From Mycolicibacterium chubuense (lineage in GTDB: Bacteria; Actinomycetota; Actinomycetes; Mycobacteriales; Mycobacteriaceae), in contig NZ_JYNX01000025.1 of assembly GCF_001044255.1 (NCBI RefSeq), positions 23,281 through 87,280 of the forward strand: 64,000 nt of DNA, in the 5' to 3' direction. Of the stretch, positions 2,221 to 14,934 are shown piece by piece. The position numbers and the translations under genes were made by a program. The notes beneath the pieces were generated by a model that saw only the letters and a program-made list of their open reading frames with translations, did no database searches and was not told the origin of the DNA. Numbering within the stretch: the first letter of the stretch is position 1; each line of letters opens with the position of its first letter.

Positions 2221-3900
2221 TCAGATGATCGGATCGTCGTCGGGGCGGCGCAGCCGGAGCCACCGGTAACCGTAGGCGCCCAGTTGGAGGTCGACCCTTC
2301 CCTTGGCGTCGAGCGATTGCTCGGAGAGGCCATCGAGCAGATCGACGAGGACACAGCCAGGCCCCACGTCGTCGAGAACTATCGGCACGATGACAGCCTC
2401 GGCCCCGAAGTTGTGCAGGGCGAGCATCAACCAGCCCGACTCCTCCCGGCAGACGTGGGCGAGCACCGCACGGTGGGGTTGCTTGACCACTTCTGCTGTT
2501 GCCCAACCGATCTCGGGCTGCTGGCGGTAGGTGTAGATGAGGTCGCGAATGAACCACCAGAACGAGCCGTGATCATGACGCTGATCGGCGACGTTGACGC
2601 GCTCAGGGCCGTAGAGCCCGTCGGGCAGCGGGCGGGGAAGCCGTCGACGAGGGGCGCGGGAGAAGCCGCCGTTGTCGCCGTCCGTCCACTGCATCGGCGT
2701 TCGTACCGCGAAGCGGCCAGGGATCTCGAGGTTCTCAGCCATGCCGATCTCCTCGCCGTAGAACAACACCGGTGTCCCCGGCAGGGAGAACGCGAGCGAG
2801 TACGCCATGCGCATCCGCCGTTCGTCTCCACCGAGCATCGACGGAAGCCGGCGCCGCAGACCCCGGCCGAACAGTTGCATGTCCGGGTCGGGGCCGAACG
2901 CGTCGAAAACCTCCTGGCGCTCGCTGTCGGTGAGTTTGTCGAGGGTGAGTTCGTCGTGGTTGCGCACGAAATTGGCCCATTGGCTGGTGATGTCGAGGAC
3001 CGGACGCTGGCGCAACGCCTTGGCGATCGGCCGGGCGTCGCCGCGGGCGAGGGAGAGGAAGATGTTCTGCATTCCGATGAAATCGAATTGCATGTTGAGA
3101 CCGTCTCCGTCGGCCCCCCCGAAGAACTTCTTCTGTTCCCGGTAGGGGACGTTGACCTCACCGAGGAGCACGGCATCTCCGAGGCGCCGGGTGACGAAGT
3201 TCCGCACGTCGCCCAGGTAGCGAAAAGGATCGAAGACGCCCGGGTCTCCAGGCGCACCGTCGTCGGCGAACAGAAACGGCACCGCATCGACCCGGAACCC
3301 GGACACCCCGAGCGCGAGCCAGAACCCCAGGGTGCGCGAAATCTCCTCCTGAACACGAGGATTGGCGATGTTCAGGTCAGGCTGATGCTTATAGAAGTGG
3401 TGCAGGTACCACTCGCCGGTTCTGGGCTCCGGCTCCCAGATGCTGTCCTCCTGGTCCGGGAAGACGACATCCTTCGCACTCGACGCCGGCTCGGTGGAAC
3501 TCCAGACGTAATAGTCGCGATACGGATCGTCCTTACTCCGTCGAGCGGATTTGAACCAGGGGTGCGCATCTGAGGTGTGGTTCATGACGAAATCGACCAC
3601 GACACGGATTCCGGTGGAACGGGCGGTGCGGACGAGTTCGACGAAGTCACCCAGGTTGCCGAGGCGGGGGTCGACCCCGAAGAAGTCCGTGATGTCGTAG
3701 CCGTCGTCCTTGCGGGCGGTCGGATAGAAGGGCATCAGCCACAGGCACGTCACCCCGAGGTCGAAGAGGTACTCGATGCGCTCGGTCATCCCCCGGATGT
3801 CGCCACATCCGTCGCCGTTCCAGTCGTAGAAGGTCTCGACGTCGGCGCAGTAGAAAACGGCGTTCTTCCACCACAGGTCGCCCGTCTCGATGGTCCTCAT
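2221..3900 (-). CDS. GH13 alpha-amylase family protein, trehalose-synthase-like
   Basis: A 559-residue single-module GH13 glycoside hydrolase/transglycosidase resembling the catalytic part of trehalose synthase (maltose-trehalose interconversion) without a maltokinase domain. The three catalytic acids are present: nucleophile D205 in GFRVDAVPF, acid/base E248 in LLGEVNVP, and D316 in RNHDELTL. N-terminal WWKNAVFYCADVETFYDWNG matches TreS-like enzymes, which start KNAVFYEV. Its ATG overlaps the stop of the preceding chimeric gene by 4 nt (ATGA), which fits an original LLM-GH13 operon. Substrate (maltose, trehalose, glucosylglycerol or other) is unresolved. Confidence 0.85.
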   Translation of the reverse strand: MRTIETGDLWWKNAVFYCADVETFYDWNGDGCGDIRGMTERIEYLFDLGVTCLWLMPFYPTARKDDGYDITDFFGVDPRLGNLGDFVELVRTARSTGIRVVVDFVMNHTSDAHPWFKSARRSKDDPYRDYYVWSSTEPASSAKDVVFPDQEDSIWEPEPRTGEWYLHHFYKHQPDLNIANPRVQEEISRTLGFWLALGVSGFRVDAVPFLFADDGAPGDPGVFDPFRYLGDVRNFVTRRLGDAVLLGEVNVPYREQKKFFGGADGDGLNMQFDFIGMQNIFLSLARGDARPIAKALRQRPVLDITSQWANFVRNHDELTLDKLTDSERQEVFDAFGPDPDMQLFGRGLRRRLPSMLGGDERRMRMAYSLAFSLPGTPVLFYGEEIGMAENLEIPGRFAVRTPMQWTDGDNGGFSRAPRRRLPRPLPDGLYGPERVNVADQRHDHGSFWWFIRDLIYTYRQQPEIGWATAEVVKQPHRAVLAHVCREESGWLMLALHNFGAEAVIVPIVLDDVGPGCVLVDLLDGLSEQSLDAKGRVDLQLGAYGYRWLRLRRPDDDPII

Positions 3901-4532
3901 GCCGACGCCGTCGCCGGTTGCGGCGCGGTGGGCGACAACTGCGACAACACGTGCTCACCGAACGCATCGATGAACGGGGCCTGGTGTCGACCCACGAAGT
4001 GCAGGTACAGCTCATCCCAGCCCTGCTCGATGTCCTGGTGAAGCCACGCGGCATGTTGGCGCAGATCGCTCGAGACGCGCACCGACTCCGCAACCCGCTC
4101 GCGGCTCACCGCCTCGCCGATGACGTCGAACGCCTCGACGCTCTCGGTGTCCCAGCAGACCGGCGGAGCGAAGACGTTGTTGCGCCACTGGTCATGCGCG
4201 ACGGCCAGCGCCTCCTCATCGGTCGGCGCCCAGCTCAGGTGAATCTGAAGCCTGGCGGGACCCCGTCCCCCCGCCTCGCGGTAGGCGTCGAGGACCCGGC
4301 GGGGTTTGTCGCCGGGTTGATTGACCGTGATGAGACCGTCCGCCCATGCGGCGTGGCGGGTAGCGGTGTCCGGGGTCACCGCGGGGCCGACCAGGTCGGG
4401 CACCGCCTCGGGCAACGTCCACAGGCGCGCCCGGTTGACATGGACGAGACCTTCGTGGGTGACCTCTTCGCCGTGCAGCAGTCGCCGGATCACCCCGACA
4501 CACTCGACGAGGCGCCGATCGCGAACCTCCTT
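3897..4532 (-). pseudogene. C-terminal half of a split LLM flavin oxidoreductase
   Basis: Codons 458-668 of the chimeric gene. After the dehydrogenase ends at about GIKEFV, the protein changes to RRLVECVGVIRRLLHGEEV, then an AWADGLITV strand, a DAYREAGGRGPARLQIHLSW block, WRNNVFAPPVCWDTESVEAFD and a DELYLHFVG strand. These are the second half of the TIM barrel of the non-F420 luciferase-like oxidoreductases (TIGR03885-type). The first half (117 residues) lies 10 kb away at 14581-14934 on the same strand. The halves add up to about 327 residues, the usual length of the family, with no overlap. Confidence 0.8.
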
Positions 4533-14555: not shown

Positions 14556-14580
14556 GGGTTTTCTCCAAGTCGCTGCGATT

Positions 14581-14934
14581 GCGCGGCCAGACCTCACCGG
14601 TGACCCGCTCGTTGGACGCCTCGCCCGAGCCCAGGGCCGCCCAGAACCGGCCGGGGAACATCTGAGCCAGCGTCGCGATCGCCTGGGCGATGATCGCGGG
14701 GTGATAGCGCTGCCCCGGCGCATTGACGACGCCGAACGGCAGCCGGGTCGTCGCCAGTGCGGCCCCGAGGAACGCCCACGCGAAGCCGGACTCGGCCTGT
14801 CGTTCGCTCCACGGACTGAAGTGGTCAGAGGACATGCCCGCGGTGAAGCCGGCATGCTCGGCCTGCTGGACATCGCGCAGAAGCTGCGCGGGATCGATCT
14901 GCTCGTGCGAGCAGTGGAATCCGATGACGGTCAT
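14581..14934 (-). pseudogene. N-terminal half of the split LLM flavin oxidoreductase
   Basis: The ATG at 14934 opens MTVIGFHCSHEQIDPAQLL, SSDHFSPW, a FLGAALATTRLPFGVVNAPG strand-helix, RYHPAIIAQAIATLAQMFPG and ALGSGEASNERVTGEVWP, the first half of a luciferase-like flavin-dependent barrel (TIGR03885-type). After residue 117-118 family similarity ends and the frame runs out of phase through the aldehyde dehydrogenase gene to a stop at 14332. It is 54 nt downstream of the GH13 gene ending at 14989. The matching C-terminal half is at 3897-4532. Alone, this half-barrel is unlikely to fold as an enzyme. Confidence 0.85.

What the first reader, a model, noticed from the sequence alone, without database searches (positions are those of the whole stretch)
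3897..14934. A 10-kb insert splits an LLM flavin oxidoreductase gene into two complementary halves
The 117-residue N-half at 14581-14934 and the roughly 210-residue C-half at 3897-4532 lie on the same strand in the right order. Together they make one full-length non-F420 luciferase-like (TIGR03885-type) oxidoreductase with nothing missing or duplicated. Joining them at the shared CGATCGCG/CGATTGCG boundary restores a single open frame and a clean GH13-LLM-GH13 operon, with the 4-nt overlap to the downstream GH13 gene intact. No transposase or integrase is present, so the mechanism is unexplained.
Basis: partly seen in the sequence, partly recalled or inferred. Interest (0 to 1): 0.85.

Follow-up and report, generated by a model that had tools for sequence, protein, structure and literature searches.

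The report
Foreign gene block splits mycobacterial gene
In one mycobacterial genome a 10,000-base patchwork of genes, most of it apparently taken from other mycobacteria, has landed inside an enzyme gene that is still whole in the related genomes examined, with no sign of a mobile element to explain how it got in.

Summary
The two pieces cover positions 1-114 and 116-315 of TIGR03885. They lie together in one open frame in 10 of 10 relatives' loci checked, among them the single-contig sister genome G054, whose 329-aa copy passes the family cut-off. The net insertion is 10,048 bp. The C piece is fused in frame to a semialdehyde dehydrogenase cut short by the junction. The insert is a mosaic of at least four modules. 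Three are closer to their best relatives (88-90%) than core DNA is (69-84% in rows over 1.7 kb), so they came horizontally. No integrase or transposase in the main ORFs, no inverted ends, no tRNA site. Best reading: one recent non-homologous insertion of a mosaic segment from an unsampled mycobacterium, perhaps sealed by Ku/LigD end joining (both encoded). It knocked out the LLM gene and cut the captured operon from its usual upstream region. The kind of event is known. No reads and no joined donor were available.

The parts
14579..14934 (-). N-terminal piece of the interrupted LLM oxidoreductase (TIGR03885), start codon kept; its frame runs on about 80 codons into the insert, out of frame with the next gene
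   Evidence: NCBIfam TIGR03885 positions 1-114; in 21 of 148 genus genomes a listed match starts exactly at 14579 (three candidates scored per genome); ORF 14332-14934
3897..4533 (-). C-terminal piece of the same LLM gene, stop codon kept, 4-nt overlap with the downstream GH13 gene
   Evidence: TIGR03885 positions 116-315; alignment to G054 ends at 4533
4531..14578 (.). Net insertion of 10,048 bp relative to the empty site of G054
   Evidence: window 1-4533 = L021 3826-8359 and window 14579-19019 = L021 8357-12809
4531..4533 (.). TTG at the left junction, present in the LLM gene of G054 and at the same place of the dehydrogenase in all five loci printed (two of the five, L041 and L121, are probably the same record)
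14579..14581 (.). TTG at the right junction; not seen at that place in the five relatives of module D aligned
4531..5998 (-). Module A: succinate-semialdehyde-type aldehyde dehydrogenase, cut at least 10 codons before its end in relatives and fused in frame to the LLM C piece (ORF 3897-6032, 711 aa)
   Evidence: Aldedh 448.6 bits; NF006915 536.3 bits, below its cut-off of 730; 88-90% DNA identity to G282, G273, G261
5999..6172 (.). About 174 bp absent from all five loci of module A read (which continue at about 6173-6292); no clear match in the loci fetched
6173..6292 (.). Rest of module A (upstream DNA of the dehydrogenase in its relatives), sharp end at 6292
6369..6836 (+). Module B: 155-aa protein whose C-terminal part resembles a short stretch of glucose-6-phosphate dehydrogenase; module about 6294-6844
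   Evidence: PF00479 36.4 bits; 88-89% identity to G051 and G091
6847..8676 (-). Module C, gene 1: 609-aa protein, weakly like an alpha/beta hydrolase
   Evidence: Abhydrolase_6 21.0 bits, below the cut-off of 26.3; 84% identity to G019 C100 over 6887-8036
8678..9367 (+). Module C, gene 2: TetR-type regulator
   Evidence: PF00440 54.3 bits; the 8260-9338 stretch lies beside the hydrolase in G019 too, 73%
9494..10995 (-). Module D: amino acid permease, broken by a frameshift near 10.42 kb relative to intact copies in three relatives
   Evidence: tblastn of intact copies gives two adjoining pieces in different frames
11005..12744 (-). Module D: FAD-dependent amine-oxidase / CrtO-like oxidoreductase
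   Evidence: PF01593 73.9 bits; NF045689 279.1 bits, far below its cut-off of 1000
13125..14555 (-). Module D: gamma-aminobutyraldehyde dehydrogenase; start codon 23 bp inside the right junction, ribosome-binding-like GGAG kept, upstream motif of its relatives absent
   Evidence: NF010000 693.6 bits over cut-off 615
2221..3900 (-). Downstream GH13 gene (alpha-amylase fold, TreS-like)
   Evidence: PF00128 258.1 bits
14989..17547 (-). Upstream GH13 gene (TIGR02455-type)
   Evidence: TIGR02455 884 bits over cut-off 719.4

Best explanation
A 10,048-bp segment, already a patchwork of at least four gene modules in its donor, entered this genome (a member of the genus that holds Mycolicibacterium vulneris) from an unsampled mycobacterium. 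It was inserted into the LLM gene by a non-homologous join that lost none of the target. The left end could anneal on three shared bases (TTG); no shared sequence is demonstrable at the right end. Ku/LigD end joining is the likeliest sealing machinery, and conjugal or other transfer of chromosomal fragments the likeliest delivery (both inferred). Consequences: the LLM enzyme is lost; an aminobutyraldehyde dehydrogenase/oxidase/permease operon now sits behind the GH13/LLM gene without its usual upstream region; and the shortened semialdehyde dehydrogenase reads in frame into the LLM tail, so translation could still reach the 4-nt overlap with the downstream GH13 gene. Shown: empty site, junctions, mosaic, foreign origin of modules A, B and D. 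Inferred: single final event, end joining, expression effects.
For: Empty site in sister G054 and one open frame over both pieces in 10 of 10 loci (10 of the 21 relatives with such a match). Module D is 89-90% identical to G019 and G197, core DNA 81-84%; A 88-90% to G282, G273, G261, core 69-76%; B 88-89% to G051, G091, core 73-82% (modules; core = rows over 1.7 kb, without one 64% row of G197 taken as a paralogue; shorter rows and the tmRNA stretch set aside). Flanks of G019 are 80-86%. Among 396 genus genomes and 401 family genomes (partly the same) no scored place other than G000's links two modules; only one or two places per genome were scored, mostly one. With 40 places scored, G054 shows no D, A, C or B above about 70-73%. 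At D's usual place G000 and G054 share a different continuation, so their ancestor probably lacked D there. A/B break sharp at 6292. LLM pieces show no excess of amino-acid changes on the G000 branch: C piece 6 against 5 (5 ambiguous), N piece 1 against 2 (1 ambiguous), so the break is young. Ku and a LigD polymerase gene over cut-off, about 1 kb apart on C58. No terminal inverted repeats (208 of 300 shuffles match as well).
Against: No donor with the modules joined was found, so a pre-assembled segment is an inference; stepwise growth at this locus is possible. Module C is no closer to its relative (84%, 73%) than core DNA is, so its foreign origin is not shown. About 50 bp between B and C and about 150 bp between C and D match none of the loci fetched. 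Three shared bases at one end are weak evidence for annealing (about 1 in 20 by chance, own arithmetic with equal base frequencies). The genome is a 96-contig draft and no reads were available.
Confidence: 0.72

Rival explanations
1. Stepwise growth: one module entered the LLM gene first and the others were added later at the same spot.
For: The modules lie apart in the relatives read, the A/B break is sharp, and an extra 174-bp stretch splits module A. The broken permease shows some decay after arrival, or a sequencing error.
Against: LLM pieces look freshly interrupted, which leaves little time. Modules A, B and D have similar identity to their best relatives (88-90%), and no intermediate was seen in the places scored in 396 and 401 genomes.
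Confidence: 0.15
2. Integration of a circular molecule at a TTG core by a site-specific recombinase acting in trans, or a transposition with a 3-bp target duplication.
For: TTG stands at both junctions and once in the empty site, which is what a 3-bp duplication or a 3-bp crossover core would leave.
Against: No recombinase or transposase in the scanned ORFs, no inverted ends beyond chance, and the left end falls inside a dehydrogenase gene whose relatives carry TTG natively, so no duplication is needed there.
Confidence: 0.08
3. Assembly or sequencing artefact: unlinked DNA stitched into the contig.
For: Draft of 96 contigs; the modules are unlinked in relatives; no junction can be checked in reads.
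Against: An artefact would have to leave the gene and return to the same base without loss. The two junction regions share no direct word longer than 6 bases in the stretches compared. No second copy of a module above about 73% identity was found in the genome (searches places scored each). Contamination is given as 0.03.
Confidence: 0.05

Closest known systems
Double illegitimate recombination and homology-facilitated illegitimate recombination of foreign DNA (named in a passage of PMC4437187; the primary papers of de Vries & Wackernagel 2002 and Hulter & Wackernagel 2008 seen only as references there)
   Same: Foreign DNA joined to the chromosome with little or no homology at the ends and no mobile-element gene.
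   Different: The cited titles concern natural transformation of Acinetobacter; here the insert is a multi-source mosaic, the target lost nothing, and the mode of uptake is unknown.
Bacterial non-homologous end joining by Ku and LigD (passages of PMC7719229)
   Same: Both genes are in this genome, about 1 kb apart. A reference listed there has end joining by Mycobacterium tuberculosis Ku/LigD at regions of microhomology (title only seen).
   Different: Its action at this junction cannot be tested from sequence.
Distributive conjugal transfer in mycobacteria (passages of PMC3706393)
   Same: Moves unlinked chromosomal segments between mycobacteria and yields mosaic genomes; the passages report a 55-kb stretch of nonhomologous donor DNA and fine mosaicism whose mechanism is called unclear.
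   Different: The authors postulate homologous recombination for the simple crossovers; here no homology beyond three bases was found at the ends, and the modules have their best relatives in different lineages.
TIGR03885 FMN-dependent LLM class oxidoreductases
   Same: The two pieces together cover the model; the sister's intact copy passes the cut-off.
   Different: Here the gene is interrupted after about residue 118.

Membership tests
TIGR03885 LLM oxidoreductase (interrupted gene) | Score over the curated cut-off of 398.7 bits as one protein | tested here: not met
   Pieces score 202.4 and 233.1 bits apart; the intact sister copy scores 456.3. The window holds two fragments of a member, not a member.
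TIGR03885 LLM oxidoreductase (interrupted gene) | Both parts of the model present once, in order | tested here: met
   Positions 1-114 and 116-315, same strand
Transposon or insertion sequence | Transposase gene | tested here: not met
   No such Pfam, NCBIfam or PHROGs match in the main ORFs scanned; small ORFs in the gaps not scanned
Transposon or insertion sequence | Terminal inverted repeats | tested here: not met
   Best match of the two ends is 13 of 30 bases, reached by 208 of 300 shuffles
Transposon or insertion sequence | Target-site duplication | tested here: inconclusive
   TTG at both junctions, but native to the left module as well
Integrative element or genomic island with tRNA attachment site | Integrase and tRNA/tmRNA target | tested here: not met
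   The only tRNA-like gene of the window is a tmRNA at 31202-31569, 16.6 kb from the insert; no integrase match
Non-homologous (illegitimate) insertion | No or only a few shared bases between target and insert ends | tested here: met
   3 bp at the left end in 5 of 5 loci printed, two of them probably one record; none demonstrable at the right end in 5 relatives aligned
Non-homologous end joining product | Dependence on Ku and LigD | not testable with these tools
   Genes present; the event itself cannot be assigned

The most novel reading that the evidence does not exclude
The block is the product of one capture event in which several unlinked fragments of conjugally delivered DNA from different mycobacteria were joined end to end and sealed into a single break, a bacterial counterpart of multi-fragment break repair. 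The in-frame dehydrogenase-LLM fusion would have been kept because it preserves translation into the downstream GH13 gene.
Probability: 0.08. Interest if true: 0.7.

Novelty: new member of a known kind. Interest (0 to 1): 0.35.

Why it matters
It is a clean, young natural case of a catabolic gene block entering a mycobacterial chromosome without any recognisable mobile element, with the empty site known to the base from a single-contig sister genome. Such cases bear on how accessory genes move between mycobacteria, where the passages read leave the mechanism of fine-scale mosaicism unclear (PMC3706393). It also gives annotators a caution: a 711-aa 'fusion enzyme' and a 200-aa 'LLM protein' here are most likely debris of one event.

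Tried and rejected
Plasmid records gave no match covering the block: 8 records, each covering at most 3% of the query. The named-genome scan with the 711-aa fusion protein confirmed 290 relatives and kept the best 80; the residue ranges of those 80 lie within 2-517 of 711, so none covers the LLM part and no second fusion was seen, with the caveats that 210 were not listed and the window's own record may be left out. The idea that D was moved from its usual place within this genome was rejected: at that place G000 and G054 share the same other sequence, and G054 shows no close D. The idea that A and C sit side by side in a donor was considered because a gene next to C in G019 lies some 2 to 7 kb from A in G261 and G282, but the relative orientation differs from the window, so it was not pursued. 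A still-working split enzyme was considered: constraint on the pieces is equally explained by a recent break, and the C piece sits behind a dehydrogenase. A paper search for TIGR03885 found 0 papers. I made no paper search for this very insertion, so I make no claim that it is unreported.

Results against the reading or dropped: G142's module D match runs 14 bases past the right junction and was treated as chance extension. Searches scored only one to three places per genome, so their absences are weak and their counts are lower bounds. Dehydrogenase and GH13 paralogue matches (such as 26-29% identity rows for the upstream GH13 in four relatives) were not used. In one search rows under 1.7 kb, one 64% row of G197 and the tmRNA stretch were set aside; a 77% row of G197 (0.8 kb) was among the short ones. 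Structure search of the intact sister protein gave a solved luciferase-family relative (9hav) but did not bear on the mechanism.

Full report
Check of the observation. The window lies in a 5.9-Mb, 96-contig genome (G000) at C25:23281-87280. Its genus includes Mycolicibacterium vulneris: the same-genus relative G273 and that named record share a contig of the same length, 341,514 bases. On the minus strand, 14582-14934 encodes positions 1-114 and 3897-4532 positions 116-315 of TIGR03885. The two are complementary, in order, without overlap. The 4-nt overlap with the downstream GH13 gene is there and is the same in the sister genome.

Empty site. In G054, a single-contig genome about 91% identical here, window 1-4533 aligns to L021 3826-8359 and window 14579-19019 to 8357-12809. 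So 10,048 bp are extra in the window, and three bases, TTG, stand once in G054 and at both window junctions. G054's gene is 329 aa and passes TIGR03885 (456.3 bits, cut-off 398.7). Among 148 genus genomes, 21 have a listed N-piece match that starts exactly at the junction base (three places scored per genome; one weak match of G142 overruns the junction by 14 bases). Ten of these 21 came as loci, and in 10 of 10 both pieces lie side by side in one open frame.

What the insert is. Read on the plus strand it holds: module A, a semialdehyde-type aldehyde dehydrogenase (reverse strand) that loses at least 10 codons at the junction and runs in frame into the LLM C piece as one 711-aa ORF; a 174-bp stretch missing from the five loci of A read, two of which are probably one record; module B, a 155-aa protein with a short glucose-6-phosphate-dehydrogenase-like part; module C, a weakly hydrolase-like 609-aa protein and a TetR regulator, divergent; and module D, an amino acid permease, a CrtO-like FAD oxidoreductase and a gamma-aminobutyraldehyde dehydrogenase. 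The last passes its family cut-off (NF010000, 693.6 against 615); the CrtO-like match does not (279.1 against 1000). The permease is broken by a frameshift near 10.42 kb relative to intact copies in three relatives. Together A and D look like parts of a putrescine/GABA-type catabolic set; that is inference from family names.

Mosaic and foreign. In one search (396 genus genomes including G000) module D is listed nearly whole as one match in 19 others and in two pieces in G168, module A in three, and modules B and C in other sets. No scored place but G000's links two modules; the same holds for 401 family genomes, a sample that overlaps the first. Only one or two places per genome were scored in these calls. 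In G019, C and D lie on different contigs. Modules A, B and D are 88-90% identical to their best relatives, while core DNA near the window is 69-76% identical to the A relatives, 73-82% to the B relatives and 81-84% to the D relatives (rows over 1.7 kb, one 64% row of G197 left out as a likely paralogue). These three modules therefore most likely arrived horizontally. Module C (84% and 73%) is no closer than core DNA, so nothing can be said. Searches with 40 places scored show no close copy of any module in G054 and no second one in G000. At D's usual neighbourhood G000 and G054 share the same different continuation, which argues against a move within the genome. The A/B break is sharp at 6292; about 50 bp between B and C and 150 bp between C and D match none of the loci fetched.

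How it got in. I found no transposase, integrase or phage structural gene in the main ORFs scanned, no terminal inverted repeats (local repeats at each end are short) and no tRNA site; the only such gene in the window is a tmRNA 16.6 kb away. At the left end TTG is native to the LLM gene and to the dehydrogenase in the five loci printed: a three-base match that may have helped or may be chance. At the right end five relatives of D show no TTG at that place. The break lies 23 bp before the start codon of the aminobutyraldehyde dehydrogenase, keeping its ribosome-binding-like site but losing an upstream motif, GTTGAACAGTTGACATG, that is exact in 6 of 136 fetched loci (two of them overlapping stretches of G019) and absent from the window at up to 3 mismatches. 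Two non-homologous joins with nothing lost from the target fit end joining of a foreign fragment into a break. Ku and a LigD polymerase domain are encoded about 1 kb apart. Mycobacterial conjugal transfer is a plausible source of such fragments; the passages read report mosaic progeny and a 55-kb nonhomologous stretch (PMC3706393). Delivery and sealing are inferred, not shown.

Age and consequence. Between G000 and G054 the LLM pieces have dN/dS of 0.07 and 0.09, like the neighbouring GH13 genes at 0.06 and 0.12, and amino-acid changes are not more frequent on the G000 branch: 6 against 5 for the C piece (5 ambiguous), 1 against 2 for the N piece (1 ambiguous), with 7 against 5 (6 ambiguous) for the downstream GH13 gene as yardstick. 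The break is therefore recent compared with the split of the two species, or the pieces are still constrained; I prefer the former. G000 has three other full-length relatives of the family below its cut-off, which may soften the loss. The in-frame fusion has one chance in three of arising by accident; that it keeps translation flowing into the downstream GH13 gene is a guess.

Standing. This is a natural example of a known kind of event, illegitimate insertion of horizontally acquired DNA, with an unusually clear empty site and mosaic content. Nothing here needs a new mechanism. The main doubts are the absence of reads and of a donor with the modules joined.

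Noticed in passing
window 31202-31569: tmRNA gene (tag ADSNQRDFALAA); it explains a stretch of about 400 bp that is 89-92% identical to mycobacteria whose surrounding DNA is far less alike.
   Followed up: yes
window 6369-6836: A 155-aa protein whose last 70 residues resemble a short internal stretch of glucose-6-phosphate dehydrogenase; matches of 79-89% DNA identity occur as a 0.5-kb unit in many mycobacteria, and its neighbours in G051 lie elsewhere in G091, G282 and G261, as if a domain fragment had become a wandering small gene.
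   Followed up: partly
L022, L025-L030, L126, L127, L130, upstream of the aminobutyraldehyde dehydrogenase: A conserved motif around GTTGAACAGTTGACATGGAGAACTTAAGCACA, exact or with a few changes, lies upstream of the dehydrogenase in the relatives printed; a likely promoter or operator of the operon.
   Followed up: partly
L023 (G019 C11) around 8719-8735: In G019 the same site lacks the whole stretch from the downstream GH13 gene to the LLM gene: window 2204 and 14997 become neighbours, so the locus is prone to change.
   Followed up: no
window 19019-21047 against L021: G054 has about 0.9 and 1.8 kb extra at two places a few kilobases from the insert.
   Followed up: no
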